In this document: positions 19,570 to 48,335 of the stretch, in pieces
Layout: each line of letters starts with the position of its first letter
Numbering within the stretch: the first letter of the stretch is position 1
Source: an uncultured Candidatus Peregrinibacteria bacterium
Lineage (GTDB): Bacteria; Patescibacteriota; Gracilibacteria; Peribacterales; Peribacteraceae
Length of the DNA: 64,000 bases
Assembly (NCBI GenBank): GCA_903854335.1
Contig: CAINVY010000013.1
Location: 124,001-188,000, forward strand
Direction of reading: 5' to 3'
The notes under the pieces: generated by a model
What the model was told of the DNA's origin: nothing
Databases searched by the model: none
Seen by the model: only the letters and a program-made list of their open reading frames with translations
Program-made: the position numbers and the translations under genes

Positions 19570-21819
19570 TTAGATAAGCGGCTCCTCGAATGTCTCTTCG
19601 ACGGCGGAGATTTCTTCCTTGGAGGGTGGCGCGGAAGCGGCTTCATCCCACTTTTTAAGCATTTCTTCCACTTCCTTGCGCGGGGTGCAGTACTTGCGTC
19701 GTGAGGAGGCGATGATCTCCTCGGTATGGTCATCTTTCATTTTCGGGGCGTCTATCGTTCGTCCCGAGAACGCTTCACGCAGCTCGCCATTTACAGACAT
19801 CTTGATGTAGAACTCTCGGACGCCGAGGTTGATGATATCGCGCTCCTTGAAGACGGGGTTATATTCTCCGGCAAGCGTGATGGCGTCCTCCGCACCCACG
19901 CGGAAGCTGATGATCGACCCGACGTTGCCGAAGACGGTCTTACGAACGACATCGGACAGTTGTCCCATGTACTGATGCGCAATGGTCAGGTTGAGGCGGT
20001 ACTTGCGTGCTTCGGAGAGGATTTCCGTGAAAGTATCGGTGGCGAAGTTCTGGAACTCATCGACGTAGAAGTAGAAATCGGGACGTTCATCTTCCCGCGT
20101 GTCCGCGCGGCTCATGGCGGCTTGGTAGATCTTCGTGATGAACATGGCGCCGATGAGGGAGGAGTTCTCTTCGCCAAGCAACCCCTTCGATACCTTCATG
20201 AGCAGGATCTTCTTCTTATCCATGATTTCGCGGATATCGAACTTCGTCACCGGTTGGCCGATGATGTTGCGGATCATGTTTGTGGCGACAAATTGCCCTA
20301 CCTTATTGAGCAGCGGTGTGATGGCATCGGCATCGAACTTCTCGGACCAAGCTGCGAATTCCGAGACCCAGAAGCTCTTCACGACGGAATCCTGGATGCG
20401 TGCGACGATCTTCTGACGGTAATTCTTGTCCGTGAGCATCTTCAGGATCGAGAGGACCGTCGTATTTGGACTGTCGAGGAGGGCGAGCGTGGTGTAGCGC
20501 AACACGTGCTCAAGACGGTCGGACCAGTTTGAGCCGAAGAGTTTCTTGAAGATTTGCAGGAAACCGATCGTCACCTGCATTTTGTAGGCTTCCTCGACTT
20601 TCTCGAGCGGATTGAAGGCGAGCGGGAATTCCGTATCGGAGGGATCCAGGAGAACCACATCGTCGATGCGATTTTCGGGGATGAATCGCATGATCGAATC
20701 GATAAGATCACCGTGCGGATCCAAGACGGCGATGCCTTCGCCGTTGCGCAAATCTTCATTGATGAGGAGTTCCAGGAGCTTGGTTTTGCCCACGCCCGAC
20801 TTTCCTACAGTGTAGAGGTGGCGGCGGCGATCCGAGCGCTTGATGCCGAAGGGCACGAAGTTGTTGTGGTAGTTCGTGATGCCGAAGCCCGAGACATCCT
20901 TCTCACCGATTTTCGGGAGATCCTGCGGAGGATCCGATTTGCGGGCAAGAACGTGGACGATGTGCGGAACGGCGTCGGCGTTCGGGAAGTGGTAGAGGGT
21001 CGCGACCTCTTTCGCGTTCAAGATGTGCGTCTTCGCATGCGTGCGGGAGCGGTACTGCTGGATGAACGAGTCCGCATTGCGCATGTGGATGCCGCGGAAT
21101 CCGTTGATGTCCCGATCGTTGTACTGCGTGAATGCGGCGACGATCGAATCGAGTTTGCGTCGTGCGGTGGCGGGATCATCGGCGATGTACGCGCAGCGAA
21201 TGCTTACCTTGTACGGTTTGATCGTGGTCTTCTCGTCTGCTTTCGAATGGCGGAGTGAGCGAATACCTTTGCGTCCCCCTTCGCGCAACCGGTCGCGGAT
21301 CGAGAAGAAGTGGTAGAGGTGCGCGAGCCTCATCCTGACGGTTCGCTTGAAGTGGTAGGTGCCCGAATCGTCCTGGGGCTCGGCGATGATCTGCACCCAG
21401 ACTTGATCGTTGGCGCCGATTTTCGAAATCACGGAGAAGAGGCGCGAGGTCGAATCCTCTTCGAACAGATCGTACGTTTTGATGGGATACACGTCGTACT
21501 CCTTCAGATCGAGAACGGCGCCGGCAAGTGAACGCTTCTTCGGATCGAAGAGCAGCGAGTAATCACCGGTCTCCTTGATCTCGGCTTCCGGGAACGTGGC
21601 GTAGACGAGTCCTTCGATCGTCTCGAAGAGCTTGTCTTCGACGACAATGAAGAAGTATGCGTACTGATCGAATCCGTAGTACTCGAGCGACACTCTGCGT
21701 CCCGTGAAGGTATTGCGCATGTTGATCAGAAGTTCCTGGAACTTCGATTCCAGCTTCATATTCCCCTCAGTCCCTTGCGGGATGACGACATGCAGGAAGC
21801 GGAGGGAGGGGGGAGCCAT
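19570..21819 (-). CDS. TraG/VirD4-HerA-like ATPase (type IV secretion DNA-binding domain)
   Basis: A 749-residue P-loop ATPase. The N-terminal 350 residues resemble the alpha/beta domain common in CPR homologues. Walker A is GKSGVGKTKL (about residue 350), followed by VLDPHGDLIDSI; Walker B is FYFYVDEFQNFA (about 580), then ARKYRLNLTIAHQYMGQL, the sensor-like motif of VirD4/TraG proteins. It may act in DNA transfer or pilus/competence systems. No transmembrane helices are obvious, and no other secretion genes are near. It ends with acidic and Ser-rich residues. Confidence 0.85.
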   Translation of the reverse strand: MAPPSLRFLHVVIPQGTEGNMKLESKFQELLINMRNTFTGRRVSLEYYGFDQYAYFFIVVEDKLFETIEGLVYATFPEAEIKETGDYSLLFDPKKRSLAGAVLDLKEYDVYPIKTYDLFEEDSTSRLFSVISKIGANDQVWVQIIAEPQDDSGTYHFKRTVRMRLAHLYHFFSIRDRLREGGRKGIRSLRHSKADEKTTIKPYKVSIRCAYIADDPATARRKLDSIVAAFTQYNDRDINGFRGIHMRNADSFIQQYRSRTHAKTHILNAKEVATLYHFPNADAVPHIVHVLARKSDPPQDLPKIGEKDVSGFGITNYHNNFVPFGIKRSDRRRHLYTVGKSGVGKTKLLELLINEDLRNGEGIAVLDPHGDLIDSIMRFIPENRIDDVVLLDPSDTEFPLAFNPLEKVEEAYKMQVTIGFLQIFKKLFGSNWSDRLEHVLRYTTLALLDSPNTTVLSILKMLTDKNYRQKIVARIQDSVVKSFWVSEFAAWSEKFDADAITPLLNKVGQFVATNMIRNIIGQPVTKFDIREIMDKKKILLMKVSKGLLGEENSSLIGAMFITKIYQAAMSRADTREDERPDFYFYVDEFQNFATDTFTEILSEARKYRLNLTIAHQYMGQLSDVVRKTVFGNVGSIISFRVGAEDAITLAGEYNPVFKERDIINLGVREFYIKMSVNGELREAFSGRTIDAPKMKDDHTEEIIASSRRKYCTPRKEVEEMLKKWDEAASAPPSKEEISAVEETFEEPLI

Positions 21820-22041: not shown

Positions 22042-23724
22042 TCAATACACCTCCTTCAGGTAACACTCCTCGCATACGATGCGCTCCGGTCGGTCAGGAG
22101 CATAGCTTGTGATGATATGCTTGCGGCAGTTGTTACATGATCGTTCCCAGAGTTTGCGAGGATTGCGAAGCTTCATGCGACGGCGATGCCGCTCATCGGG
22201 ATGAAGGTGCGCAACAGGCAAGTCGTGCTCGCGATAGAATTCCAGCTCCTTCTTCACGATCCTGAACGGGCGCTTGGTTTCTTCGCATTCGATCGCCCAA
22301 TCCAAAATATCGTCAGGAATATCGTTGATGGAGTGAGGCAGCTTGGAAGCCGGGATTACCCGCGAGACTTCCGGCATCTCGTCGCGCTGTTCCCTCCATC
22401 GCCATCCCTTCTTGAGGACTTCTTCTTTTGCGAGAGGGAAGTAGTCCAGTGCCGTCGATTCGTTGTAGGCGAAGGGTGCGCAGGTCGACGGAAAGAATTC
22501 CCCCCACTCTCCTGTGTTCCGCATGTGTTCGATGAGCTTCGGCACCAGGGTTTCATACTCTTCCTTCGTATGCTGCTTGTTGAGGATGCAGAACGATGCG
22601 GGCTTCATACTCACGCAGCAGCAGAGATCCGATCCGGTCTGAACAGTGTCGCAGAGGATGAGCCGCTTGCCGCTCCACGATCCGTGTGTGAAGAGCGTGT
22701 GGTACGAACCGTATCCCAAACTGATGCCTTCGTATCCCAGCTCGGCATCCGTCGTATGGCAGACATCCATCAGATCCTTCACATGGAATCCCGTGTAGAT
22801 GTAGGCGCAATCTTCGCCGTAGGAGAGATCAAAGCAATGACGGACGTTGCGAGAATTCTTGAGGAAGTCTCCCGAGGCATTCTCGCAATTGATGATCAAT
22901 GCCGCCCTATGCAGACTCCGCTCGTGCATTTCCAAAAACTCCCGAAAGAGTTGCTCGCGTTTTCCTTCGTTGAGCGCCTGCGAGATGTTATTTAGCTCGA
23001 TTGCGTACGCTTCGGGCGTGACCTGCTTGTTTCGCACGTAGTGTCGTTTGTTGCGGAGATTACTGCAGAAGAGGCATTGGCTGCAGCCTCGGCAATCGGA
23101 GAGGAATGCGCTCTCGGAACAGTTGCTGCAATCGCGGGAGAAGGAGAGTGAGTGGCTCTTCTCGATATTCGTCACCTCATAGCAGTACTGCGATTCCAAG
23201 CAGTCGAGCGTGTCCATGCATCCGATCGACTTGATGACTTGCGTGCCGTAGAGACAATCTTCGTTGTACTCGCCGGCGTGAATGAGATAGCAATTTTTGT
23301 TGTAGCCGGAGAGATTTACGAACTCCGAATTCTCATTATTTACGACATTGAGCGAGATGCGCGGAACGACTTCCTGCAGGCTTCGGATCTGCGGGAATAT
23401 CGGGCGGCTGAAATCGATATCTCGACCGAATTCCTTCGAATCCCATCGGTCCGACCACCAGCAATCCGGGCAGTACACCGTGAAGACGCTGTCGGCGGGA
23501 TAGATCGCAATGATGGACTTCTTGCAGAGGTCGCAGGTGCGGCGGTAGAGACTGCGCTCATTTCGAAATTCGAGTCTGCGTTGCTGGCGGCAATCGGGGC
23601 AGAGAGTGGGAGGAGGAATCCCGAATATCTTTCCTCCGAACGTCGGTGCGACCTTGAGAAGCATCGTCATATCGGCGTCACTGACATCGAATGCGCCGGA
23701 ACACTGGCCGCAAACATGCTGCAT
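22042..23724 (-). CDS. Cys-rich array protein P1 (complete double zinc ribbons at both ends)
   Basis: 560 residues, no signal peptide, function unknown. N-terminal module A1 (1-90) has C5xxC8 with C42PDC45 and C64DLC67 with C85PDC88. C-terminal module A2 (480-554) has C480, H508, C530NNC533 and C551EEC554. The spacing CX2C-X17-CX2C is identical in the second ribbon of both modules, and C42-C64 and H508-C530 are both 22 apart, so the ends are homologous. Two Cys-rich halves (B1 about 130-255, B2 about 295-405) lie between. P1 is the only paralogue with the full A1 set; its B2 lacks the CFGC motif and has DLCCC instead. The ATG at 23724 gives the family start; an earlier in-frame start at 23778 is poorly placed. 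It follows a TrmB-type gene by 113 bases. Confidence 0.88.
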   Translation of the reverse strand: MQHVCGQCSGAFDVSDADMTMLLKVAPTFGGKIFGIPPPTLCPDCRQQRRLEFRNERSLYRRTCDLCKKSIIAIYPADSVFTVYCPDCWWSDRWDSKEFGRDIDFSRPIFPQIRSLQEVVPRISLNVVNNENSEFVNLSGYNKNCYLIHAGEYNEDCLYGTQVIKSIGCMDTLDCLESQYCYEVTNIEKSHSLSFSRDCSNCSESAFLSDCRGCSQCLFCSNLRNKRHYVRNKQVTPEAYAIELNNISQALNEGKREQLFREFLEMHERSLHRAALIINCENASGDFLKNSRNVRHCFDLSYGEDCAYIYTGFHVKDLMDVCHTTDAELGYEGISLGYGSYHTLFTHGSWSGKRLILCDTVQTGSDLCCCVSMKPASFCILNKQHTKEEYETLVPKLIEHMRNTGEWGEFFPSTCAPFAYNESTALDYFPLAKEEVLKKGWRWREQRDEMPEVSRVIPASKLPHSINDIPDDILDWAIECEETKRPFRIVKKELEFYREHDLPVAHLHPDERHRRRMKLRNPRKLWERSCNNCRKHIITSYAPDRPERIVCEECYLKEVY

Positions 23725-23837: not shown

Positions 23838-24635
23838 TTATGCGTTCACTCCCTCATCCCAAATATCCCGGAATTGTTTGAGGTAGAGATTGCGTACTTC
23901 GGGATGGCGAATGATGATGGTTTTCGGGTTATCGTCATCGCAGACGAAGTGGCAAACACGATCATCGGCAAATCCGATGTAATCTTTTCCCATAGGAAGC
24001 GTGTCGAGCAGCCTCGTGCGACGAAGCTCCTTCGAATCTCTGCTGGCGAATCGTTCCGATTCCTTCGAAATGGTGTTGAGCGCGATGGCGTAGATTCTTC
24101 CTCGGTATCGCTTATCACGAAATCCGAGCTCTTCCGGCGACTCATCGGACATGCCGGCGATGTTCCAGTAATTCTGCATGGAGCCGAACGAGAGATATTC
24201 GCTCTCACAGGAGTCCGGAAGCTTCAGATACTCCTCGCGAAACGCATCCAAACCTTCCCGCACTTCGATCAACTCATCGCTATCGTTGTGCGTATATTCT
24301 CGATCGAGATCGAGAAAAGGAAGGAGCGGATCGAGATCTTGGAGCGCGAGTTGAAGTTTGCGCAGAGCCCGTTGCTCAGAGGCGAGCTTCTTCGTCAGGG
24401 CGCGCAGCGTCAGGGGCGCGAAGACGGATTGTTTCTGATTCACTTTCAGCGCAGAGACGAGCCCCCGATCCTGCAGCCGCTTGATCGTTCGGTAGGCCGT
24501 CATGACGTTGAGGCCGCTGCTCTCAATGAGCTCGGACATCGAAGCGCGTCGCAGCTTGAGTAGCTGCAGATACAGCGCCACTTCCTCCTCGCGGAGGCCT
24601 GCGAGCGAAAGAAGATGGAAGAGACGGTTTTTCAT
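23838..24635 (-). CDS. TrmB-type transcriptional regulator, array unit P1
   Basis: 265 residues. Residues 5-75 form the winged helix of the TrmB family (LLSLAGLREEEVALYLQLLK, SGLNVMTAYRTIKRLQDRGLV, the latter cited in part), followed by a short coiled segment (RALRKLQLALQDL) and a C-terminal effector-type domain of about 150 residues. TrmB proteins usually sense sugars or other small ligands. Its C-terminal end (VCHFVCDDDNPKTIIIRHPE) resembles the regulator at 31871-32638, so the two are probably duplicates. It heads a two-gene unit with P1. Confidence 0.8.
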   Translation of the reverse strand: MKNRLFHLLSLAGLREEEVALYLQLLKLRRASMSELIESSGLNVMTAYRTIKRLQDRGLVSALKVNQKQSVFAPLTLRALTKKLASEQRALRKLQLALQDLDPLLPFLDLDREYTHNDSDELIEVREGLDAFREEYLKLPDSCESEYLSFGSMQNYWNIAGMSDESPEELGFRDKRYRGRIYAIALNTISKESERFASRDSKELRRTRLLDTLPMGKDYIGFADDRVCHFVCDDDNPKTIIIRHPEVRNLYLKQFRDIWDEGVNA

Positions 24636-28206: not shown

Positions 28207-28257
28207 TGTGGAGAGTAGCGTAGCACAACTCGTTTGGAGTGCGGAGCACGAGAGAAA

Positions 28258-28330
28258 AGTGAACAGTGGGAAGTGAACAGTGAACAGTGCTTGATATTCG
28301 TACCTCTTCCCACTGTTCACTGATAACTTT
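28258..28330. repeat. CAGTG-rich unit-end repeat, copy 3 (after P3)
   Basis: AGTGAACAGTGGGAAGTGAA is followed by CCCACTGTTCACTGATAAC; AGTGAACAGTGGG pairs with CCCACTGTTCACT perfectly over 13 bases. It ends at the P3 stop codon and lies about 50 bases upstream of the glycosyltransferase-like ATG. Confidence 0.75.
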
Positions 28331-30016
28331 TCAGTAGACTTCCTTCAGATAACATTCTTCGCAATACATCTTTTCCTTTCTCTCCGGGGCGTATGTCGTC
28401 TGCACTTCTTTGCCGCACTTCATGCAGGAGCGCTTCCAGAGTGTGCGGGGATTGCGCAGGCTCAAGCGTCGATCGTAGCGCACATCGGGATGGAGGCGCG
28501 GTACGGGAAGATCCTGACGTCGATAGAACTCCAATTCCTGTTTGATGATGCGGAAGGGTCGGCCGGTTTCTTCGCATTCCACGGCCCAATTCACGATATC
28601 ATCGGGAATGTCCTGAATGCGATCGGGAAGCAGAGAAGCGGGAATGGTCTTGGCGACAGAGAGCTTGGCATCGGTCATGTGTCTCCAGTGGTATCCCTCC
28701 GCGCGTGCTTCCCTTTCTGTGAGCGGAAGGTATTCGTACGCGAGAGATTCGTTGTAGCCGAAGGCGGAGAGGGACGGAGGGAAGTACTGGCCCCATTCTC
28801 CGTTTTTCTCCATGTGCGCGATGATCTTGGGGACGAGGAATTCGTACTCTTCCTGCGTGTACTGCTTGTTGAAGATGCAGAATTTCTTGTGGCGAAGGCC
28901 GCTGCAGCCGAAGCAGTCGTGACAATGGAAACACCACTCGCAGTAGAGCAGGTTCTGGCTGTGGAATACAAAGAGACAGTAGGCCGTGTTGTAGGTTTCG
29001 ATCGTGCCGAGCGTCTCGTAGGCGAGTTCGGGCTTGATGTACATGTTTGAGCAGTCGTAGTTGTCCTTCACCTTCACACCGACGGTCACGTAGCGGCTAT
29101 CCTGGCTCTCATTGACGTCGTAGCAGTCGAGGCAGTCGCGGGAATTCTCGATGTAGTCGCCGGTGCAATGCTCGCTGTTCACGACGTTCGCAAAGCGGTG
29201 CGGCGTTGTCATCCGCAATTGTTCCAATTCCTCTTTCATACGTGCCATTCCCTTGGCCGATCCGAAGAATTCCTTCACGCGGTTCTCGTATTCTTCCTTC
29301 GTCAGCTTCTCGTTGCGGAAGTGATACTCCTTCTGGCGCAGGTTAGAGCAGAGGCAGCAGTTGCTGCAGCCGACGAGATTGAGCGAGAAGAGGCAATCGC
29401 GGCAATTGGTAGAGAACGAGAGCGAAACGCAATGGTAGGACTTGTACACAGAGAAACAGTCATAGCAGAGCTCGCTGTCGTAGAGGTACGAGCAGTCGAC
29501 GGAATCCTTGCAGCTCTGCAGCAGCTTTCCGTAGTAGCAATCCTCGCAGTACTCGGAGGAGTTGATGAGGTAGCAGTCCTTGCAGTAGCCCGTTCCCGCG
29601 GTGAAGTCGGAATTTTCATTCCCGATCACCATCATACCGAGGCGGGGAACGTCGCTCTGGAGTCGGGCGAATTGTTCAAAGAATGGTTTCTCGAAGTCGA
29701 ATGCGCGTCCGTACTCCGTCATGTCAACGCGGTCGGCGTTCCACTCCTCATGCGTATAGACTTTGTGATGCTGTCCCGGCAGTGGCTCCTCGTGATAGAC
29801 CGACACGATTTCCTTTCCCGTGAGAGTTCCCTTGCGTCGGTAGAAGTTGCGTTCATTGCGGTGACACGTTCGCCGTTTCAATCTGCATGCGGGGCAGAAG
29901 ACGGGGAGGGGCGGGTGGATTTCCTTGCTGCCCAATGTGAACACCATCTTTTTCAGAAATGCCTCTTCATCAGGGAAGATCGGGAAGTCGTTACGGCACT
30001 GGCGGCAGGTGGACAT
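28331..30016 (-). CDS. Cys-rich array protein P3
   Basis: 561 residues. A1 has CRQC (4-7) and CPAC, but the second-ribbon Cys is Gly (RRKGTLTGKEIVSVY). B1 has dense pairs (GYCKDCYL, EYCEDCYYG, DCLFS, GCSNCCLCSNLR), and B2 has CTGDYIENSRDCLDCYDV, HCHDCFGCSGLRHKKFC and a KQYTQEEYE end. A2 has CEETGRPFRIIKQEL, LHPDVRY (His in place of the CP Cys), CMKC and CEECYLKEVY. It has no same-direction partner in its unit: the repeat separates it from P4 upstream and another lies after its stop. Confidence 0.85.
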   Translation of the reverse strand: MSTCRQCRNDFPIFPDEEAFLKKMVFTLGSKEIHPPLPVFCPACRLKRRTCHRNERNFYRRKGTLTGKEIVSVYHEEPLPGQHHKVYTHEEWNADRVDMTEYGRAFDFEKPFFEQFARLQSDVPRLGMMVIGNENSDFTAGTGYCKDCYLINSSEYCEDCYYGKLLQSCKDSVDCSYLYDSELCYDCFSVYKSYHCVSLSFSTNCRDCLFSLNLVGCSNCCLCSNLRQKEYHFRNEKLTKEEYENRVKEFFGSAKGMARMKEELEQLRMTTPHRFANVVNSEHCTGDYIENSRDCLDCYDVNESQDSRYVTVGVKVKDNYDCSNMYIKPELAYETLGTIETYNTAYCLFVFHSQNLLYCEWCFHCHDCFGCSGLRHKKFCIFNKQYTQEEYEFLVPKIIAHMEKNGEWGQYFPPSLSAFGYNESLAYEYLPLTEREARAEGYHWRHMTDAKLSVAKTIPASLLPDRIQDIPDDIVNWAVECEETGRPFRIIKQELEFYRRQDLPVPRLHPDVRYDRRLSLRNPRTLWKRSCMKCGKEVQTTYAPERKEKMYCEECYLKEVY

Positions 30017-31870: not shown

Positions 31871-32638
31871 TTAGACGTTCTCGATCTTCTGAGAAAAGAG
31901 TTCGAAGCGGGCGCGCTCCGCATCGGCGAGCGTTCGGGACTTAACGAGGACGGCGTAAGGATTCTCTGGATCGCGGAAGTGAGCGTAGAGAACTTCGTTG
32001 CCGGTATCCGAGAAGACAATGAAGTGATGTTTAAAGTCGAAGTCAAAGACCTTGGTGCGGCTGAGGAATTTCTTTGCGGCATCTCGCGTGCAAAAGTGGT
32101 CAGTGAAGGGGCCGAAGGTGGTGCAGATGGCGCGGTGAGCCGCATGCTTCATCCGATCCTTGCGGAAGTTCACAGGTGTGTCCAATCCTCCGATGATCGG
32201 AACGAAGTGTTCGAAATCTCCGAAGTCGATATTCGTGTCATATTTAGTCTGCGCCATGTGCAAGTATGCGTCGCGAATCTGGTCCGGTGTGTAGTACGTT
32301 TCGAAAGAGTCGCTCTCGGATCCAGCCCTATGGAGGTAAGGGGCAATTTCCTTGAGCTTCATGATATTTTTCCTCAGCGATCGTTCTTGCTTCTGGAGTT
32401 CAGCGACGACGTGTTTCAGCGAGCGAGCGGAGATTCCATCTTGAGTATTCTCCACGACTTTCAGTGCGCGCAGACGATCGAATGCACGGTAGGTGGAGCT
32501 CTTTGTAAGCCCCGTGCGCTTCACGAGATCCCAGATGGACGCAGCGGGATTCTTCACCAGCTCTGCATATACCCGCACTTCCGCTTCACTGAAGCCGCAG
32601 TCGAGGAGGAGCGAGCGGAGCTTTTGGGAAAGTTTCAT
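31871..32638 (-). CDS. TrmB-type transcriptional regulator, array unit P4
   Basis: 255 residues from the ATG at 32638 (MKLSQKLRSLLLDCGFSEAE). The winged helix covers residues 5-70 (VYAELVKNPAASIWDLVKRT, GLTKSSTYRAFDRLRALKVV), then a Lys/Glu-rich helix (ELQKQERSLRKNIMKLKEI) and a ligand-type C-terminal domain. An upstream in-frame ATG at 32674 is rejected because the promoter and inverted repeat overlap it. The predicted transcript start falls at or next to the ATG, so translation may be leaderless. Confidence 0.8.
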   Translation of the reverse strand: MKLSQKLRSLLLDCGFSEAEVRVYAELVKNPAASIWDLVKRTGLTKSSTYRAFDRLRALKVVENTQDGISARSLKHVVAELQKQERSLRKNIMKLKEIAPYLHRAGSESDSFETYYTPDQIRDAYLHMAQTKYDTNIDFGDFEHFVPIIGGLDTPVNFRKDRMKHAAHRAICTTFGPFTDHFCTRDAAKKFLSRTKVFDFDFKHHFIVFSDTGNEVLYAHFRDPENPYAVLVKSRTLADAERARFELFSQKIENV

Positions 32639-32645
32639 GGGTAAT

Positions 32646-32688: not shown

Positions 32689-34380
32689 CTAATATACCTC
32701 ATTTAAATAGCACGCCTCGCACAGAACGGATTCTTCGCGATCGGGAGCGAAGGATGTCAAGATTTCTCCGCCGCATTTTGCGCAGGGGCGGGTCCAGAGA
32801 TGACGGGGGTTGCGCAGCGCCATGCGGCGGCGATGTCGTTCATCGGGATGGAGTGTGGGTACTGGCAGTGAAAGTTGTCTGTAGAAATCCAATTCCTGTT
32901 TGATGATTTTAAATGGTCTCTTGGTTACCTCGCACTCGATTGCCCACTGCAAGATGTCATCCGGCGTCTCGTTGATGGTTTCGGGAAGCAGGCGACCGGG
33001 GATGATTTTCGTGGCATTCGGAATATCATCGACGGAGTCTCTCCATGCCCATCCATTTTCAATCACTTCTTTCTTCGAGAGAGGGAAGTACTCCTGCGCG
33101 ACGCTCTCGTTGTACGCGAACGGAGAAAGCTCCACCGGAAAAAATTCTCCCCACTCGCTCGTCTTCCGCATGTGCCCGATGATCTTCGGAACAAGCTGTT
33201 CGTACTCCTCCTTCGTGTATTGCTTGTTGAGGACGCAGTACTGCGCGTGCTTGAGCCCGATGCATCCGAAGAGATCGTGACAGCCATTTACGCAGAGTTT
33301 GGAGTAGGTGCAATTGTTCACATCGGTCCATGCCTGATCGCAGAAGATAATGTTGCGCGCACCGTCACCGATCTCGTGATTCTCATAACAGAATTCCGCT
33401 CCTTTGAGTGAGCCGAATACCGTCACATCTTGCACCTTCTTCATGCGGCGGCAGTTGAAGAGATGCTTGCAATCCTGCGATTCCTGAACATCAAAACAGG
33501 AAACGCATCGTTGTGTGTTCCAGAGGTAATCGCCGGTGGAGTCTTCATTCTGTGTGCCGCGTAGCGCTTTGCAGTGAAATTTCTTCGCAAATGTAGAACA
33601 GTTTTCGTGTAATACGAAAATCTTCGAACGAGATCTGAGTTGGAATGTTGCGAGACGAGCTGCATATTCTTCCGGCGATAATTGTTCATTGAAGATACAG
33701 TGGCGCTTGTTGCGCAGATTGACGCAACCTACACACTCCGAGCAGCCGATACATTGCGTGAGGAACCAGGAATCAGAACAATTCTGACAATTCTGACTGA
33801 AGTGAAGGTGATAACAATTGATGCAATCGATGCACTCGTAGCAGAGTTCGCATCGTGTGATTTGCAGATTGTCCACGCACTTTTTCGAGTCGTAGAGGTA
33901 GTTGGCGTAGAGACAATCCTCGTCGAAATCCGCCTCGAAGATGAGGTAGCAATTTTTGCACCATCCGCACTGGTTTGTGTAATCCGAATTCTGATTGCCG
34001 GAGGCCGATCGAGAAAGTTGAGGTACCGCCAGGAAGAGTTCATGAAATTGCTCGAAGAATGGTCTTCCAAAATCGAAGTCTCTGCCGAAAGAACGCGCAT
34101 CCCATTTGTCCGAGTGCCATTCATCATTATCGAATACCTTATATGGCTTTTCCTTCGCGTAGACGGAGATGATTTCTTTTCCTGTGGAGGAGCAGGTTCT
34201 TCTGTAGAGCGTTCGCTCATTGCGCCAATTCAAACGTCTGCGTTGCCGACAATCCGGACACAGAGTTGGCGATGGGATCAGTTCCTTTTGTCCTGAAAAA
34301 ACTGGAGAAACTTCTTCCAAGAAAGCGAGATCGTTCTGGGATATTTCGAATGCCGATGCACATTGTTTACAGGTGAGCAT
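32689..34380 (-). CDS. Cys-rich array protein P5
   Basis: 563 residues. A1 has CKQC (4-7), CPDC and a single CSSTGKEIISVY Cys. B1 is regular (GWCKNCYLIFEADFDEDCLY, CELCYECIDCINCYHL, NCQNCSDSWFL, GCVNLRNKRHC; cited separately). B2 is the longest of the family, with an extra segment (WTDVNNCTYSKLCVNGCHDL) before LFGCIGLKHAQYCVLNKQ. A2 has CEVTKRPFKII, LHPDERH, CAKC, CEACYLNEVY. It lies between the P6 unit-end repeat and the second TrmB gene, 50 bases away with no repeat between, so P5 and that unit may be co-transcribed. Confidence 0.86.
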   Translation of the reverse strand: MLTCKQCASAFEISQNDLAFLEEVSPVFSGQKELIPSPTLCPDCRQRRRLNWRNERTLYRRTCSSTGKEIISVYAKEKPYKVFDNDEWHSDKWDARSFGRDFDFGRPFFEQFHELFLAVPQLSRSASGNQNSDYTNQCGWCKNCYLIFEADFDEDCLYANYLYDSKKCVDNLQITRCELCYECIDCINCYHLHFSQNCQNCSDSWFLTQCIGCSECVGCVNLRNKRHCIFNEQLSPEEYAARLATFQLRSRSKIFVLHENCSTFAKKFHCKALRGTQNEDSTGDYLWNTQRCVSCFDVQESQDCKHLFNCRRMKKVQDVTVFGSLKGAEFCYENHEIGDGARNIIFCDQAWTDVNNCTYSKLCVNGCHDLFGCIGLKHAQYCVLNKQYTKEEYEQLVPKIIGHMRKTSEWGEFFPVELSPFAYNESVAQEYFPLSKKEVIENGWAWRDSVDDIPNATKIIPGRLLPETINETPDDILQWAIECEVTKRPFKIIKQELDFYRQLSLPVPTLHPDERHRRRMALRNPRHLWTRPCAKCGGEILTSFAPDREESVLCEACYLNEVY

Positions 34381-34469: not shown

Positions 34470-36131
34470 TCAATATATTTCCTTCAAATAACACTCCTCA
34501 CACGCCACCATCTCAGGTCTCTCGGGCGCGTACGTTGTCCACGTGTCCTGTCCGCACTTCGTACATTTCCTGATCCAGAGTTGGTACGGATTGCGGCGAG
34601 CCATTCGGCTTCGATGACGCTCGGTCGGGTGCAGGCGGGGGAGGGGGAGGCGCATGCGGCGGTAGAAGTCGAGCTCCTGCTTTACGATCTTGAACGGTTT
34701 GCCGCTTTTCTCACACTGGATGGCGGATTGTAGAAGGTCATCGCTCATGTCATCGATGTTGTCTGGGAGAGAGGCGGCAGTGATCACTCTCTTCGCTACG
34801 GGAATCTCCTCGGGCGTATCGCGCCATGTGAATCCCATCTTCCTTGCCTCGTTCTCCGAGAGGGGCAAGTAATCCTGGGCTGCGGATTCGTTGTAGGAGA
34901 AGGGCATCGTGTGTGGCGGGAAGAATTCCCCCCATTCACCGGTCTTGCCCATGTGATCGATGATCTGCGGAACGAGTTTCTCGTACTCCTCTTTGGTGTA
35001 TTGAGTATTAAGAATGCAGTATTCCTTATGCCGAAGTCCGATGCATCCGAAGCAGTGCTTGCAGGAGATGCAGCTGTCGCAGTAGCGCAGATTATTGCCG
35101 AAGAAGGTGTAGCGGCAGAAGGCGAGATCGATGGAGCCGCGCGAGACTGCAGAGAAGTAGATCTGTTCGCAGCGCGGCCAGCCCGCGGAGTAGCACGAGA
35201 TTATGTCCTTCGTGTCCGCCATGGAAATGCTCTGCGTGCAGTCCTCGGCGTCGTGCCCATCGAAACAGCGCAGACAATTCTTCGCGTTGTACATGTGATC
35301 GCCGATGACATTCTCGCAATTCAGATTGTGCAGCGCGCGATGGACGGATGCTTCGCGCATGCGCAGGTACTCCGCGCGTGCGTCCTTCCACTTCGCGTAC
35401 GAGCCGCAGAGGAGAGCCGTTTTCGCTGCGGCGAATTCTTCTTTGGTACAGGGGGCGTTGCGGAGGTAGTACGAGCGGTTCGCGAGATTGCTCGAGAGGA
35501 GGCAATGGTCGCATCCGGTCAGTTGAAAGCAGAAATGGCAATCGTTGCAATTTCTCGATTCTTCGAGCGATGTCACGTCGTAACATTTGTCGCAATCGAC
35601 GCACTCGTAACTCAGCGTGCTGGCGTTGGTCAACATGCAGTCGATGACATCCTTCCCGTTTTCGATCCAGTAGCTGAAGTGCGTGTCCTCGCTCGTGGCG
35701 ATGAGGGAATTCATGTAGCAGTTCTTTGAATCGCGGATATGACTGTTGTAGTCGCAATTCTCGCTGCGGAAAACGGACGTGCCCTCCCGCGGCACGACCT
35801 TCTGGAGTTCCTCGTACTGCACGAAGAACGGTTTGACGAAATCGAATGCTCGTCCGTACGTCAGTGCGTCCCAGGAATCTCCCCACCAGATGTCGTTGCG
35901 GTAGACCGTGAACGGACTCTCGGGCGGGTACGCGCTGATGATCTCCTTCTTCGTTTTGTCGCAGGTGCGCCGATACAGCTTCCACTCGTTGCGCGAGGCC
36001 ATGACTTTGCGAAGACGTTCGCGAGGAGAGATGGTCGGGAGCGGGATGTTCCGTTCAGCAAGGAACGCGATCTCTCCGTCGGAAATCTCGAAGGGTTCGC
36101 CTGTGATCGAGCAGGGTCGCGTCTGAGGCAC
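34470..36131 (-). CDS. Cys-rich array protein P6
   Basis: 553 residues from a GTG start four bases after the P7 stop; the start matches P2 and P4 in lead length. A1 lacks the CxxC and CPxC pairs (CSITGEPFEIS, then NIPLPTISPRERLRK) and the usual GKKELIPPP insertion. In this it looks more like an A2 module, for example DIPLPRKCPEQRLKERL of P12, and helps link the two ends. CDKTKKEIIS keeps one Cys. B2 has CISCKHCFGCIGLRHKEYC. A2 has CEKSGKPFKIV, LHPTERH, CTKC, CEECYLKEIY. Last gene of the large unit. Confidence 0.85.
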   Translation of the reverse strand: MPQTRPCSITGEPFEISDGEIAFLAERNIPLPTISPRERLRKVMASRNEWKLYRRTCDKTKKEIISAYPPESPFTVYRNDIWWGDSWDALTYGRAFDFVKPFFVQYEELQKVVPREGTSVFRSENCDYNSHIRDSKNCYMNSLIATSEDTHFSYWIENGKDVIDCMLTNASTLSYECVDCDKCYDVTSLEESRNCNDCHFCFQLTGCDHCLLSSNLANRSYYLRNAPCTKEEFAAAKTALLCGSYAKWKDARAEYLRMREASVHRALHNLNCENVIGDHMYNAKNCLRCFDGHDAEDCTQSISMADTKDIISCYSAGWPRCEQIYFSAVSRGSIDLAFCRYTFFGNNLRYCDSCISCKHCFGCIGLRHKEYCILNTQYTKEEYEKLVPQIIDHMGKTGEWGEFFPPHTMPFSYNESAAQDYLPLSENEARKMGFTWRDTPEEIPVAKRVITAASLPDNIDDMSDDLLQSAIQCEKSGKPFKIVKQELDFYRRMRLPLPRLHPTERHRSRMARRNPYQLWIRKCTKCGQDTWTTYAPERPEMVACEECYLKEIY

Positions 36132-36135
36132 GCGA

Positions 36136-37785
36136 CTATACTTCCTGCAAATAGCATTCCTCGCAATAGACGGTTTCCGGTCTCTCGGGTGCGTAGGTCG
36201 TCTCCATCGGTTTCCCGCACTTCATGCAGTCGCGTTTCCAGAGGTGGCGAGGATTGCGGAGGGCGAAGCGCTCGCGTTGTCGCTCCTGGAAGCACTTGCG
36301 GGGGAGGGGGAGTTTCATCTGGCGGTAGAACGCGAGTTCCTTCGGGATGATTTTGTACGGTTTCCCGGAGGTTTCACAGCGGAGGATCGATGCGCAGATG
36401 GAGTCGCTCGCATCGTTGATGTCGATGGGCACTGTCACGTCGGGGCCGAGGTAATTTTGGGATGTCTCTTCCGGTGTCTCCTCCTTCCACTTCCATCCGC
36501 GAGCGACGGCTTCTTCTTTCGTCAGCGGAAAGTATTCCTGTGCGATGGTTTCGTTGTAGCCGAAGGGACTGAGTGCATGGGGGAAGAATTGCCCCCACTC
36601 TCCGGCGCGCTTCATGAGTTCTTTCAGCTTCGGTAGAAAGTTCTCGTACTCTTCCTTCGTGTATTGCTTGTTGAGGATGCAGTAGCGAGCGGACTTCAGC
36701 CCCACGCATCCGAAGCAATCTTTCGAGGCGAAGCAGTTGTCGCAGTAGAAGAGATCCGCGCACTCATTCTGGCAGGTGTGGCAGCCCATGCATCGGTAAT
36801 TGTCTCCGATGGTCAGGCATTGGTAGCAGAGTTCGGCTTTCGCGCCCGAGAAGTTGCAATCGGCGCAATCCTTGAAGCTCTCGAGCGTCGCACCGTAGAG
36901 GCAATCTTCGCAGTTCTTCAGATCATACCCTTGTGCGATATTTCTGCAGTTGTAGAGGTAATCGCCGGCGACGTTCTCGCAGTTGAATCCGTGATAGCAC
37001 TTCACGATTTCTTTCCCGATGAGCTCCTTCACTTTCTCCTTCGCAAATGCGATCGTGCGGGAGTTTCCCGTATTCAGTTCCGCGAGTTTCTTTTGATACT
37101 CTTCCTTTGAATGCGGTTGATTGAAGATGTGAAATTCTTTGTTTTTGAGTCCCACGCATCCGAAGCAATCTCTGCAGCCCGTGCAGTGTACGAGGAACAT
37201 CGAAGACGAACAATTGTCGCAATCACGCGAGAAGTTCAGTGAGTGGCACTGCACACAGTCGATGCATTCGTAGCAAAATTCCGATCGATAGGTGTAGAGG
37301 CAGTCGTAGCAGTCCTTCGATTGCCAGACGATGTGGCCGTACGAGCAATCCTCGTTGCGCACGTTCCCGAAGACGAGGTAGCAATTTCTGCTGTTGAAGG
37401 ACATGTTGCAGTAGTCCGTGTTCTCGCAGTTCGTGTTCATGATGGACATGCGCGGGACGGTGCGGTGGAGAACCGCGACTTGATCGAAGAACGGCTTCGA
37501 GAAATCCGGATCGATCCCGTAATCGAGCGCGTTCCATTTGTCGCTCCACCACTCGTGCAGTTCGTAGACCGGGAAGGGAACGTCCTTGTCGTACATCGCG
37601 ATGATCTTCTTCCCCGTCAGATCGCACGTACGGTGGTAGAGATTGAAAAAATTGCGGAAGACGAGCCGGCGCTGTCTGCGGCAATCCGGGCAGTCAACGG
37701 GATCGGGTACGTCGATGGTCTCGTAGAGTGTTCTCTCTTCGGGGAGGAGATCGAAGGGGGCCGAACATTGATTGCAAGTCGCCAT
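36136..37785 (-). CDS. Cys-rich array protein P7
   Basis: 549 residues from the ATG at 37785, one base after the P8 stop; an in-frame start at 37818 lies inside P8. A1 has CNQC, CPDC and CDLTGKKIIAMY. B1 carries CIDCVQCHSLNFSRDCDNCS, GCRDCFGCVGLKNKEFHIFN; B2 carries CENVAGDYLYNCRN, CHTCQNECADLFYCDNC and CFGCVGLKSARYCILNKQ. A2 mixes both subfamilies: IIPKEL and RKCFQERQ (Cys as in P8-P12) with CEECYLQEV (as in P1-P6). It marks the border of the two subfamilies. Confidence 0.86.
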   Translation of the reverse strand: MATCNQCSAPFDLLPEERTLYETIDVPDPVDCPDCRRQRRLVFRNFFNLYHRTCDLTGKKIIAMYDKDVPFPVYELHEWWSDKWNALDYGIDPDFSKPFFDQVAVLHRTVPRMSIMNTNCENTDYCNMSFNSRNCYLVFGNVRNEDCSYGHIVWQSKDCYDCLYTYRSEFCYECIDCVQCHSLNFSRDCDNCSSSMFLVHCTGCRDCFGCVGLKNKEFHIFNQPHSKEEYQKKLAELNTGNSRTIAFAKEKVKELIGKEIVKCYHGFNCENVAGDYLYNCRNIAQGYDLKNCEDCLYGATLESFKDCADCNFSGAKAELCYQCLTIGDNYRCMGCHTCQNECADLFYCDNCFASKDCFGCVGLKSARYCILNKQYTKEEYENFLPKLKELMKRAGEWGQFFPHALSPFGYNETIAQEYFPLTKEEAVARGWKWKEETPEETSQNYLGPDVTVPIDINDASDSICASILRCETSGKPYKIIPKELAFYRQMKLPLPRKCFQERQRERFALRNPRHLWKRDCMKCGKPMETTYAPERPETVYCEECYLQEV

Positions 37786-37786
37786 T

Positions 37787-39463
37787 TCAATTGACGGAAG
37801 AAAGATAACACTCTTCACAGTAGATGACCTCCGAATGGTCGGGCGAGAAAGTCGTTTTCATCTGCTTCCCGCATTTTGCGCATGTACGAGACCAGAGGCG
37901 ACGTGGATTGCGCGCGACGACGCGATCGGCATGCCTCTGGTCGGGGCAGCGGCTTGGGAGGGGGAGTCCCATTGTCCGGTAAAACTTCAGCTCTTGCGGG
38001 ATGATTTTGAAGGGCTTGCCCGATACGGAACATCGCAGGATCTGATCGCAGATGGAGTCGGGGACATTATTGATTGTGAGCGGCGGCGTGATTGCAGGTC
38101 CGAGATACGCATCCTTCTTCTCGCGATCCTCGTACCAATGCCATCCTTTCGCTTCCACCTCCTCCCTTTTTTTCGGGAATTGCTCCTGCGCGACCGTTTC
38201 GTTGTAGCCCATGTATGAGAGACTCGGATCGAAATGCTCCCCCCACTCTCCGGTTTTGCGCATGTGTTCGATGATCTTCGGCACGAGCATCTCGTACTCT
38301 TCCTTCGTGTACTGCTTATTCAAAATGCAGTACTTTTTTTTGCGAAGGCTGATACAGCCGAAGATGTCGGAGCAACCGTGGCATTCTCGCGAATACCACT
38401 GGTTATCTCCGTACCAACACATGAAGGTGGAGAAGGCGTGCTCTACGCCAACGGTGGATCCCGCTTCGCAGGCCCACTTCACTCCGTCGGGCGCGTTGTA
38501 CGTGCAGTCGTAGCTTCGCAACGCTTTCGGTGTGTAGCAGAGGTACTTGCTGTCCTCGCCGTCAGTAATGTCGAAGGAGGAATGACAGTTTTTCGAGGAG
38601 AAGATCATGTCGCCCGTGCAATCCTCGCTCCCGTAGATGTGCGATCCGCGGTGCGGGAGCGGCGAGCGGAGTTTCTCCAATTGCGATTTCAAATTCTCGA
38701 TTGTCGCATGCGTGAGAGGGAAGAGCGCGCCGATGCGTCTCTGGTATTCCTCTCTGCTTAATTGCTCATTGAGGAAGCAGTACTCGCGGTTGTGGAGACC
38801 GAAGCACAGGCAGCAATTCTTGCAACTCTGACAATCTTTGATCATGAGTGACGAGGAGCAATTGCGGCAGTTGGAGAAGAAGAAGCACTCGTAACAATTC
38901 TGCGAAGCGCTGCCTTCGTAGCACCATTGGCACGAGTAAAGGGAGAGACCATCGAGGCAATTTTTGGAGTCGACGACGAAGCGGCCGAAGAGACAATCCT
39001 CGCTGTTGCCGCCTCCGAAGAGCAGGTAACAGTTGCGCATGTTCAGCGTATGATTCGTGTAGTAGCTGTTCTCGACGTTCGTCGTGAAGAGCGCCTGGTG
39101 GGGGACGCAGAGTCCGAGCGCTGAACATTGTTCCGAGAATGTCTTTCCGAAATCAAACTCGCGGCCGTAGCTTAGCTCGTCCCATTGGTCGCTCCAGAAT
39201 TCATCCTGATCGTAGACGACGTATGGTTTGTCGGCAGCGTACATGGAGACAATTTGCTTGCCCGTGAGGTCGGATTTGCGATGGTAGAGGAACCGCTCGT
39301 TGCGGAAACTCAAACGCCGGATGAGCCTGCACTCGGGGCAGTGCGTGGGGGGAGGAAGGCTCATTTTTGCGTTGCCGATGACCGGCGAAATCTCTTCGTA
39401 AAAATTCAGATCATCAGACGTGATTTCGAATGCCCCGCCGCATCCTTTGCATATTTTTTGCAT
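37787..39463 (-). CDS. Cys-rich array protein P8
   Basis: 558 residues. The start ATG at 39463 shares one base with the P9 stop (TGATG), so re-initiation is likely. A1 has CKGC and CPEC, but the next Cys is Ser (KSDLTGKQIVSMY). B1 ends in a Cys burst (DCQSCKNCCLCFGLHNREYC). B2 has EDCTGDMIFSSKNCHSSFDI and GCSDIFGCISLRKKKYCILN. A2 has CSVSGKPFKIIPQEL, RCPDQRH, CAKC, CEECYLSSVN. A YLGP string about 40 residues before A2 separates P7-P12 from the others. Confidence 0.86.
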   Translation of the reverse strand: MQKICKGCGGAFEITSDDLNFYEEISPVIGNAKMSLPPPTHCPECRLIRRLSFRNERFLYHRKSDLTGKQIVSMYAADKPYVVYDQDEFWSDQWDELSYGREFDFGKTFSEQCSALGLCVPHQALFTTNVENSYYTNHTLNMRNCYLLFGGGNSEDCLFGRFVVDSKNCLDGLSLYSCQWCYEGSASQNCYECFFFSNCRNCSSSLMIKDCQSCKNCCLCFGLHNREYCFLNEQLSREEYQRRIGALFPLTHATIENLKSQLEKLRSPLPHRGSHIYGSEDCTGDMIFSSKNCHSSFDITDGEDSKYLCYTPKALRSYDCTYNAPDGVKWACEAGSTVGVEHAFSTFMCWYGDNQWYSRECHGCSDIFGCISLRKKKYCILNKQYTKEEYEMLVPKIIEHMRKTGEWGEHFDPSLSYMGYNETVAQEQFPKKREEVEAKGWHWYEDREKKDAYLGPAITPPLTINNVPDSICDQILRCSVSGKPFKIIPQELKFYRTMGLPLPSRCPDQRHADRVVARNPRRLWSRTCAKCGKQMKTTFSPDHSEVIYCEECYLSSVN

Positions 39464-41133
39464 CAGTAGACGGAAGCAAGATAACACTGTTCACAGTAGA
39501 TGATTTCCGCACGGTCCGGCGAATACGTCGTTTCGATTTGTGTCGCACACTTTGCGCATTGTCTCGTCCAGAGCTTGCGCGGGTTGCGCAGTGCCAGTCG
39601 TTCCCTATGCCGTTGATCGGGACACTTGCGAGGAATCGGAATGCCCATTTCTTTATAGCATTTCAGTTCTTGCGGGATGATCTTGAACGGTCTTCCGGTT
39701 TCCTCGCATTTCAGGATCTTTCCGCAGATGGAATCATCGGTCGTGCGGATGCTCTCGGGGATCTGCACCTGCGGCCCGAGGTAATTCCGTCGCTCCTCAT
39801 CCTCATGCCAAGCAAGCTCGCGTCTTGCGACTTCTTCTCTGGAGAGCGGGAAATAATCCTCCGCGAGTGATTCATTGTACGAAAAAGGAGAGAGGGATGA
39901 CGGGAAGAACTCGCCCCACTCTTTGGTCTTCCTCATGTGTTCGATGATCTTCGGAACGAGTCGTTCGTATTCCTCCTTCGTGTACTGCTTATTGAGGATG
40001 CAATACTGCTTTCGTTTCAATCCGATGCAGCCGAAGATGTCTTTGCAATTTCCGCAGTATGCGCTGTAGAGCACGTCGTTCCCCAGCGGATAAATGAGGA
40101 AAGAGAACAGCGTGCGTTGGCCGGAGATGCAGAATCCTTGGTAATCCAACTCCGCTCCATATCCCGCTCCGTACATGTCGTGGCAATCCTTGCTCTCGCT
40201 CGGAATGTTTTGCGAGTAGGCGCAATCCTGCCCCAACTTTCCGTCGAAGCACTGTCGGCAGTTCTTGCACTGCAGCAGGTTGTCGCCCGTGCATCCCTCG
40301 CACTGGAGCAGGTGCGCGTGCAGTCGCGGTTGCTTGCGCCACAATTCCACGGCTCGTTCGTGTGCGAGCTCAATGGAGCTTCTCGTGAGGATGAGTTCCT
40401 TGAGCTTCTCTTGGTATTCGTCTTTCTGCATCGCGGCATTGAAGAGGTGATACTGCTTTCCGCGCAGTCCTGTGCAGCCGAAACAGTCGTGGCAATTTTT
40501 GCAGTCGAATGAGAAGTCCACGCTTTCGCAGTTGGTGAGCTCCTGAGAGTAGAAGCAGCGGTAGCACGATTCGCTGTCGATGAGTTGGTAGCAGAAGCGG
40601 CACTCTTTGCAGAAGGAGCAATCCATGCAGTCGCTGCAGCCGAAAAGCATGTCGCTGAAGTGGCAATCCTGGCATTGGTCGCTGGCGAAGAGCAGGTAGC
40701 AGTTCTTCACGCCCCAGTTGTAGTTGCCGTACTCGGAGTTTTCGCTCTGCTCCACGTGTCTGCTCGGGATCGGAACGACGTGCAGCAAATCGGAGAATTG
40801 CTCGAAGAACGGACGGGAGAAATCGAACTCACGTGCGAACTTCTGCGCGTCCCACTTGTCGCTCCACCATTCGCTCTGTTCGAAGACGGTGAAGGGCTTG
40901 TCCGGCGAGTAAATGGAAATGATCTGCTTTCCCGTGAGATCGCACTTACGATGGTAGAGCTTGCGATCGTTTCTCCAAGTGAATCTCTGCTGTGTGCGGC
41001 AATCGGGACAGAGCGTCGGCGGGGGAATCATCTCCTTCTTGCCCGCGAACATCGGAGAGACCTTCTCGTAGAACGCGAGATCGTCTGGCGTGATCTCGAA
41101 GGAAGCTGAACATTGGCTGCAGGACTTCTTCAT
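39463..41133 (-). CDS. Cys-rich array protein P9
   Basis: 556 residues with 41 Cys by my count, about 7 percent. A1: C5SQC8, CPDC, KCDLTGKQIISIY. B1 has an unbroken run of pairs (GCSDCMDCSFCKECRFC, then SCYRC, DCKNCHDCFGC) ending in GLRGKQYHLFN. B2: LQCEGCTGDNLLQCKNCRQC, GNCKDIFGCIGLKRKQYC and NKQYTKEEYE. A2: CEETGRPFKIIPQELKCYKE, RKCPDQRH, CAKC, 17 residues, CEQCYLASVY. It begins one base after the P10 stop. Confidence 0.87.
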   Translation of the reverse strand: MKKSCSQCSASFEITPDDLAFYEKVSPMFAGKKEMIPPPTLCPDCRTQQRFTWRNDRKLYHRKCDLTGKQIISIYSPDKPFTVFEQSEWWSDKWDAQKFAREFDFSRPFFEQFSDLLHVVPIPSRHVEQSENSEYGNYNWGVKNCYLLFASDQCQDCHFSDMLFGCSDCMDCSFCKECRFCYQLIDSESCYRCFYSQELTNCESVDFSFDCKNCHDCFGCTGLRGKQYHLFNAAMQKDEYQEKLKELILTRSSIELAHERAVELWRKQPRLHAHLLQCEGCTGDNLLQCKNCRQCFDGKLGQDCAYSQNIPSESKDCHDMYGAGYGAELDYQGFCISGQRTLFSFLIYPLGNDVLYSAYCGNCKDIFGCIGLKRKQYCILNKQYTKEEYERLVPKIIEHMRKTKEWGEFFPSSLSPFSYNESLAEDYFPLSREEVARRELAWHEDEERRNYLGPQVQIPESIRTTDDSICGKILKCEETGRPFKIIPQELKCYKEMGIPIPRKCPDQRHRERLALRNPRKLWTRQCAKCATQIETTYSPDRAEIIYCEQCYLASVY

Positions 41134-42814: not shown

Positions 42815-42816
42815 GG

Positions 42817-46133: not shown

Positions 46134-46259
46134 ACGAAAACAGAAAATCGATGAGGATCGAGTTTCTGCCAAGGCGTATTCTCCGCCGCATCGTCAAATT
46201 AGTCCAACAGCATAGAGAAATCGATTGAAATTCGTCTATTTAAAGCCAAAATCATGAAA

Positions 46260-48332: not shown

Positions 48333-48335
48333 ATT

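What the first reader, a model, noticed from the sequence alone, without database searches (positions are those of the whole stretch)
22042..23724. Internal A-B-B-A duplication, exposed by P1
In P1 the N-terminal ribbon C64xxC67-X17-C85xxC88 and the C-terminal C530xxC533-X17-C551xxC554 have the same spacing. C42 to C64 and H508 to C530 are both 22 apart, and C5GQCSGAF aligns with C480EETKRPF. Both halves of the middle region in most members also end in CFGCxxL(R) ... N(K)Q..(K)EEY. The protein therefore looks like a mirror-ordered pair: ribbon, Cys repeat, Cys repeat, ribbon. Other paralogues have lost parts of A1, so P1 is the best record of the ancestor.
Basis: seen in the sequence. Interest (0 to 1): 0.85.

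Follow-up and report, generated by a model that had tools for sequence, protein, structure and literature searches.

The report
Zinc-capped duplicated cysteine-rich solenoid protein array
A family of bacterial proteins of unknown function carries a known zinc-finger module at both ends of a rod made of two copies of a cysteine-lined repeat domain; the genes sit in tandem arrays beside a DNA-pump-like ATPase, and the claimed internal duplication is real.

Summary
The A-B-B-A duplication is real. Profiles of the two ends align at probability 99.3% (E 6e-21) and the two middle domains at 99.8% (E 4e-28), against shuffled controls scoring at most 18-22. AlphaFold2 (129 sequences, pLDDT 91, pTM 0.92) gives both ends the same order of strands and helices. 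A is a two-treble-clef zinc module (Pfam zf_Tbcl + zf_Tbcl_2) that also exists as free ~100-aa proteins. Its Cys quartets are kept or lost together. B is a predicted beta-solenoid whose Cys lie on a strict 3/12-residue register and vary independently, so they are core residues rather than metal sites. Free A, single-B and A|BB split genes exist elsewhere in Patescibacteria.

P1 is not the best record of the ancestor: it has lost the front zinc site of A2, whereas four relatives keep all 16 zinc-site Cys. "Mirror" describes domain order only; the copies are direct repeats.

The twelve paralogues form an operon-like array. It ends beside a TrwB/VirD4-like ATPase, and TrmB-like regulator genes lie in and next to it. 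The whole block is absent from a genus-mate. A closely related ATPase was found in all 18 array-bearing class members searched and none of 8 without. Function is inferred: cytoplasmic zinc-capped rods acting with that ATPase.

The parts
22042..23724 (-). P1, A-B-B-A protein, 560 aa
   Evidence: ORF and translation; AlphaFold2 pLDDT 91.3, pTM 0.92 with 129 homologues
23440..23724 (-). A1 (res 1-95): two treble clefs, C5/C8/C42/C45 and C64/C67/C85/C88
   Evidence: HHalign to A2; joint profile A3 finds free zf_Tbcl+zf_Tbcl_2 proteins
23017..23361 (-). B1 (res 122-236): Cys-lined solenoid
   Evidence: HHalign to B2; Cys lag-3 and lag-12 periodicity, 0 of 10000 permutations as high
22915..23016 (-). 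helical linker between B1 and B2 (res 237-270)
   Evidence: AlphaFold2 helices 237-252 and 256-269
22567..22914 (-). B2 (res 271-386): second copy of the solenoid
22390..22566 (-). M (res 387-445): most conserved segment, ..EWGEFFP..FxYNExxAxxYFPL..
   Evidence: lowest mean column entropy of all segments, 1.61 bits; no Pfam match
22045..22302 (-). A2 (res 475-560): second zinc module; rear site C530/C533/C551/C554 kept, front site lost in P1
24744..26396 (-). A-B-B-A paralogue
28331..30016 (-). A-B-B-A paralogue
   Evidence: sub-threshold zf_Tbcl_2, 24.2 bits
30105..31784 (-). A-B-B-A paralogue
32689..34380 (-). A-B-B-A paralogue
34470..36131 (-). A-B-B-A paralogue
36136..37818 (-). A-B-B-A paralogue
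37787..39487 (-). A-B-B-A paralogue
39463..41133 (-). A-B-B-A paralogue
41135..42841 (-). A-B-B-A paralogue
42817..44496 (-). A-B-B-A paralogue
44472..46172 (-). A-B-B-A paralogue, first gene of the array
   Evidence: the five gaps nearest the 5' end of the array are -32 to +1 nt
19570..21819 (-). TrwB/VirD4 (T4CP)-like ATPase without an obvious TM segment, last gene of the block
   Evidence: PF02534 35.8 bits over cut-off 20.1, PF10412 25.8 over 20.5; max 19-residue hydropathy 1.0; co-occurs with and adjoins arrays
23838..24635 (-). TrmB-like regulator inside the array
   Evidence: PF01978 39.1 bits
31871..32674 (-). TrmB-like regulator inside the array
   Evidence: PF01978 32.6 bits
46302..47060 (+). 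TrmB-like regulator, divergent at the head of the array
   Evidence: PF01978 31.2 bits

Best explanation
SHOWN BY COMPUTATION: P1 and its paralogues are A-B-B-A proteins. A (about 90 aa) is a pair of treble-clef zinc fingers, the zf_Tbcl + zf_Tbcl_2 module. B (about 115 aa) is a predicted beta-solenoid with Cys on a 3/12-residue register. A1/A2 and B1/B2 are duplicates. The array travels as a cassette with a TrwB/VirD4-like ATPase and TrmB-like regulators. INFERRED: the proteins are soluble cytoplasmic rods. Zinc caps (A2 clearly basic, A1 weakly) at the two ends of an acidic, Asn-rich solenoid dock onto a partner, either nucleic acid or the ATPase. Each paralogue is a different, purifying-selected adaptor or cargo for that ATPase, expressed under TrmB-like control. 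P1 should hold three zincs (both A1 sites, A2 rear); most paralogues two. How the order arose is also inferred: B was duplicated in tandem, A was fused to it and then copied to the other end.
For: Duplication; fold order. A = zf_Tbcl + zf_Tbcl_2: the joint A profile recovers ~100-aa free proteins, of which those tested score over cut-off for both Pfam models and TIGR04272; conversely PF13451 finds A domains inside A-B-B-A proteins, 24.3 bits over cut-off in G004 and 20.1-20.4 bits in the window. Zinc sites: Cys 67/85/88 are all present in 35 and all absent in 94 of 129 proteins, never partial; Cys 483 and 511 correlate 1.00. B Cys as core: all 16 frequent Cys columns of B1 fall in one register mod 3, replaced singly by S/V/L/I/T/A, mean pairwise correlation 0.004; single-B proteins have only 6 Cys. 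Origin: split gene pair A|BB in G194; A1+A2 group apart from G194's A and free A at bootstrap 99 / SH-aLRT 92. Cassette: in the class, 18 of 18 array genomes carry a close ATPase homologue (758-1694 bits), 0 of 8 array-free ones (best 346-511 bits), and where both are listed on one contig it adjoins or lies within the array in nearly all; the same kind of neighbour stands by the BB and single-B genes; the block is absent from genus-mate G106 between conserved flanks. Purifying selection: dN/dS 0.05-0.15 in all domains. Charges.
Against: No functional datum exists. Zinc is inferred from Cys patterns only. The adaptor or cargo role rests on adjacency and co-occurrence in related genomes, which are not independent. 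G067 and G190 carry a much more divergent ATPase next to B (E 1e-21 to 1e-23). Two copies each on contigs C3 and C5 of the same genome have no adjacent ATPase in the flanks read. A1 is only weakly basic (mean net charge +2.0). The solenoid is the least confident part of the model (block pLDDT 69-98), and Foldseek gives no significant match. The position of G194's A is not fully settled (p-AU 0.06 for the alternative; an earlier quick search did not discriminate); the B tree is unresolved.
Confidence: 0.4

Rival explanations
1. Metal store or buffer: the ~38 Cys per protein, in 16 copies, form a metallothionein-like zinc or iron-sulphur reservoir under TrmB-like control.
For: 27-50 Cys per protein; high copy number.
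Against: B Cys are exchanged one by one for S, V, L, I, T or A with no correlation (mean 0.004), unlike the all-or-none A quartets; homologous single-B domains have only 6 Cys; the orthologue pairs tested are under purifying selection.
Confidence: 0.12
2. Disulphide-rich exported attachment proteins, like the Cys-rich surface proteins reported for Ca. Peribacter (PMC4736985), here perhaps exported through the neighbouring VirD4-like ATPase and a type IV secretion system.
For: Same wider lineage is known for clusters of very Cys-rich proteins (PMC4736985); T4CP-like neighbour; Patescibacteria carry many VirD4 homologues away from virB4 (PMC12102498).
Against: No hydrophobic signal segment (maximum 19-residue hydropathy 1.33 among paralogues); treble-clef zinc modules suit a reducing cytoplasm (general knowledge); no pairwise Cys covariation as disulphides would give; the published proteins average 1,655 aa with signal peptides.
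Confidence: 0.15
3. Nucleic-acid-binding regulators or chromosome factors: the treble clefs bind DNA or RNA and the acidic solenoid is a spacer or DNA mimic, with the ATPase acting on DNA.
For: A2 net charge +6.4, B1 -4.4, B2 -3.7 on average; weak LIM/GATA sequence similarity of the rear clef; DNA-translocase-type neighbour.
Against: LIM treble clefs often bind protein, not DNA (general knowledge); GATA/LIM hits are weak (E 0.03-0.4); A1 is barely basic.
Confidence: 0.25
4. Chance or composition: the similarity of the two ends and two halves only reflects Cys richness and convergent CxxC spacing.
For: CxxC-X17-CxxC alone is a common spacing in LIM/GATA-type treble clefs.
Against: Column shuffles that keep composition score at most 18-22 against 108 and 155; the aligned residues include non-Cys motifs (P.P..CP..R..RR..RN.R.L..R); same predicted fold order.
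Confidence: 0.01

Closest known systems
zf_Tbcl (PF13451) + zf_Tbcl_2 (PF23477) / TIGR04272 CxxC-x17-CxxC small proteins
   Same: Same domain order, Cys positions and RCP.CR motif as A1 and A2; free ~100-aa versions occur across Patescibacteria, and the window's own genome has a free zf_Tbcl protein
   Different: Known ones stand alone; here two copies cap a 300-aa duplicated solenoid; most A-B-B-A copies score just below the Pfam cut-offs
T4CP ATPases (VirD4/TrwB/TraG; PF02534, PF10412)
   Same: The neighbouring 749-aa ATPase scores over both cut-offs; Patescibacteria have many T4CP homologues away from virB4 (PMC12102498)
   Different: No obvious membrane segment; within the class its closest homologues were found only in genomes that carry the array
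Left-handed beta-helix (hexapeptide) proteins such as LpxA/LpxD and gamma-carbonic anhydrase
   Same: Most of the weak Foldseek PDB hits of the model are of this kind; short repeated strands
   Different: No significant match (best E 0.33); 3/12-residue Cys register instead of 6/18-residue hexapeptides
Cys-rich proteins of Ca. Peribacter riflensis (PMC4736985)
   Same: Related lineage, clustered genes, about 7% Cys
   Different: Those average 1,655 aa with signal peptides; these are ~560 aa, no signal segment, zinc modules at both ends

Membership tests
zf_Tbcl PF13451 (front half of A) | Model score over the curated cut-off, 24 bits | tested here: inconclusive
   Window paralogues 20.1-20.4 bits, below; an A-B-B-A protein of class-mate G004 24.3, over; the free A beside BB in G194 33.3, over
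zf_Tbcl PF13451 (front half of A) | C-x2-C ... C-x2-C quartet of the first clef | tested here: met
   P1 A1: C5, C8, C42, C45; CCCC in 105 of 129 proteins. P1 A2: not met (C, T, H, E)
zf_Tbcl_2 PF23477 / TIGR04272 (rear half of A) | C-x2-C-x17-C-x2-C | tested here: met
   P1 A1 and A2 both; A2 in 126 of 129, A1 in 35 of 129
zf_Tbcl_2 PF23477 / TIGR04272 (rear half of A) | Model score over the curated cut-off (27 / 36 bits) | tested here: not met
   Best window paralogue 24.2 bits and 19.6 bits; related free A proteins pass, 36.3-69.5 bits
T4CP (ATPase 19570-21819) | T4SS-DNA_transf / TrwB domain over cut-off | tested here: met
   35.8 and 25.8 bits
T4CP (ATPase 19570-21819) | Membrane anchor | tested here: not met
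   Maximum 19-residue hydropathy 1.0
Left-handed hexapeptide beta-helix (B) | Significant structural match to solved members | tested here: not met
   Best Foldseek E 0.33, probability 0.02
Known anti-phage defence proteins | PADLOC model match | tested here: not met
   One of 12 members at E 0.0065 only, P1 none
Ca. Peribacter exported Cys-rich proteins | Signal peptide and ~1,655 aa length | tested here: not met
   Window members 548-563 aa, no hydrophobic segment; sequence relation not testable, their table is not at hand

The most novel reading that the evidence does not exclude
The array plus its ATPase plus TrmB-like regulators is an undescribed gene system of Patescibacteria: a dedicated, apparently membrane-anchor-free VirD4-type ATPase that works with a dozen distinct zinc-capped rod proteins, built on a beta-solenoid fold of 3/12-residue periodicity not yet seen in a solved structure.
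Probability: 0.25. Interest if true: 0.8.

Novelty: new variant of a known kind. Interest (0 to 1): 0.58.

Why it matters
These arrays take up a large share of some very small genomes (24 kb of 1.17 Mb here) yet have no Pfam or NCBIfam name. Showing that the ends are a known zinc module, that the middle is a duplicated solenoid with core rather than metal-binding Cys, and that a specific T4CP-like ATPase goes with the arrays turns a set of 'hypothetical proteins' into a testable system, with a split ancestor-like version (A|BB) to compare with.

Tried and rejected
Chance Cys spacing: rejected by shuffled and reversed profile controls. Metal store: disfavoured by independent Cys substitution in B and by Cys-poor single-B homologues. 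Diversifying recognition rod: disfavoured, dN/dS 0.05-0.08 in B between orthologues, and three paralogues have 86-92% identical orthologues in L001. Fragmented genes as a different architecture: the pieces in L014 come from TGA read as stop; with code 25 L014:6001-7677 is one intact A-B-B-A protein; the others are inferred to be the same or are contig ends. Sequence and fold searches against PDB and Foldseek against BFVD gave nothing significant; viral contigs, phages and plasmids gave no relative. A quick A tree did not settle where G194's A belongs; the careful tree mostly does. B tree unresolved. Literature: no paper found on this family.

Full report
What is there. The finding's coordinates hold a minus-strand gene (22042-23724) for a 560-residue Cys-rich protein, P1. 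It is one of twelve paralogues (31-47% identical to P1) in one orientation between 22042 and 46172, and of sixteen in a 1.17-Mb genome. The nearest homologue, 88% identical, is from a Candidatus Peregrinibacteria bin. The proteins have no Pfam or NCBIfam assignment; only sub-threshold zf_Tbcl_2 and TIGR04272 hits appear at the C terminus, and no solved structure is significantly related by sequence.

Check of the observation. Every spacing quoted is correct. The pairs are homologous: HHalign A1 v A2 gives probability 99.3, E 6e-21, score 108, and B1 v B2 probability 99.8, E 4e-28, score 155, while 100 column shuffles reach at most 17.8 and 22.1. The front half of A, the rear ribbon, and B without its shared tail are each significant alone. 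With 129 homologues AlphaFold2 reaches pLDDT 91.3 and pTM 0.92; A1 (strands 2-4, 11-13, helices 16-25, 43-51, strands 60-63, 70-73, helix 86-89) and A2 (strands 476-479, 486-487, helices 491-499, 509-519, strands 526-529, 536-539, 548-550, helix 552-559) have the same order of elements.

What A is. A profile of A1 and A2 together finds about 100-residue free-standing proteins in other Patescibacteria. Those tested score over the Pfam cut-offs for both zf_Tbcl and zf_Tbcl_2 and over the TIGR04272 cut-off, and PF13451 in turn finds A domains inside A-B-B-A proteins. So A is a known two-treble-clef zinc module, not just a ribbon. Its Cys behave like metal sites: in A1 the three Cys 67/85/88 are all present in 35 and all absent in 94 of 129 proteins, with no intermediate; A2's Cys 483 and 511 are likewise perfectly correlated.

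What B is. In B1 all 16 frequent Cys columns lie in one register modulo 3, with autocorrelation peaks at 3 and 12 residues (0 of 10,000 permutations as high). B2 is periodic too but has two registers. The Cys are replaced singly by S, V, L, I, T or A, with mean pairwise correlation 0.004. Divergent single-B proteins have only six Cys. This is the behaviour of inward-facing core positions of a solenoid. The model is a beta-solenoid of moderate local confidence; the weak PDB hits are mostly left-handed beta-helices, none significant.

How the order arose (inference, partly supported). Domain order is palindromic but all copies are direct repeats, so no single duplication explains it. G194, a distant Patescibacterium, has a free A gene overlapping a BB gene, without a second A. 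G190 and G067 have single-B proteins. In the careful tree A1 and A2 group together apart from G194's A and the free A proteins (99/92), A1 being a firm clade and A2 not (74/4); placing G194's A with A2 is nearly rejected (p 0.06). The simplest account is tandem duplication of B, fusion to A, and copying of A to the other end. The B tree does not resolve when BB arose.

Is P1 the best record of the ancestor? In its genome it is the only copy with a complete A1, but its A2 front site is gone. Four relatives retain all sixteen Cys. The A1 rear state changes about 20 times on the protein tree, so losses (or gains) were parallel; the eight-Cys state of the free proteins supports loss.

Surroundings. 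The five gaps between the six array genes nearest the head are overlaps or at most 4 nt apart, an operon-like layout. At the end of the block is a 749-aa ATPase scoring over the T4SS-DNA_transf and TrwB cut-offs without an obvious membrane segment. TrmB-like regulators lie at 23838-24635 and 31871-32674, and a third divergently at the head, 46302-47060; three of the genome's seven TrmB matches are in this 2% (p 4e-4), and in most array genomes examined TrmB genes lie at or in the arrays (none was found in G260). Within the class, a closely related ATPase (758-1694 bits) was found in 18 of 18 array genomes and 0 of 8 array-free genomes (best 346-511 bits, other paralogues) (Fisher 6e-7, not corrected for shared ancestry). 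It adjoins or lies within the array in nearly all; for G046 (and G275 outside the class) adjacency was not seen in the listed matches. ATPases of the same class also neighbour the BB and single-B genes. In a genus-mate the stretch between ribosomal protein S9 and a histidine kinase contains no array, ATPase or remnant, so the block is gained or lost as a unit.

Mechanism. Shown: domain identity, duplication, zinc-site behaviour, cassette linkage. Inferred: cytoplasmic, zinc-capped rods that act with the ATPase, as adaptors or cargo, possibly on nucleic acid. Low dN/dS in every domain (0.05-0.15, two orthologue pairs) suggests each paralogue has its own kept role and argues against a diversifying recognition surface. 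A metal store and a disulphide adhesin are less likely for the reasons given under rivals.

Novelty. The zinc module and the ATPase class are known; their combination with this solenoid, and the cassette, were not found in the literature searched. The nearest published notes are clusters of much larger, exported Cys-rich proteins in Ca. Peribacter (PMC4736985) and the survey of T4SS ATPases in Patescibacteria (PMC12102498).

Noticed in passing
window 26407-28320 (-): A 637-aa hydrophobic, probably membrane-embedded protein without a Pfam match lies inside the array, transcribed with it.
   Followed up: partly
L122:4044-5269 (G194): Split version: a free A gene overlapping a BB gene, followed by a sigma-70-region-4/HARE-HTH protein and a T4CP-like ATPase.
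   Followed up: yes
L123:4991-5689, L124:4377-5165 (G190, G067): Single-B proteins with few Cys, each immediately next to a T4CP/HerA-like ATPase; in G190 also a TrmB-like regulator.
   Followed up: partly
L126 (genus-mate G106): The whole ATPase-array-TrmB block is missing between conserved flanks; other genes, including a large secreted-looking protein, occupy the site.
   Followed up: partly
G000:C11:21008-21142: The window's own genome also carries a free-standing zf_Tbcl protein (138-aa frame, 64.9 bits).
   Followed up: no
L014:6001-7677: Gracilibacteria array member reads TGA as glycine (four in one gene).
   Followed up: yes
window 47589-49556 (+): A two-component response regulator and histidine kinase follow the divergent TrmB gene at the head of the array.
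   Followed up: no
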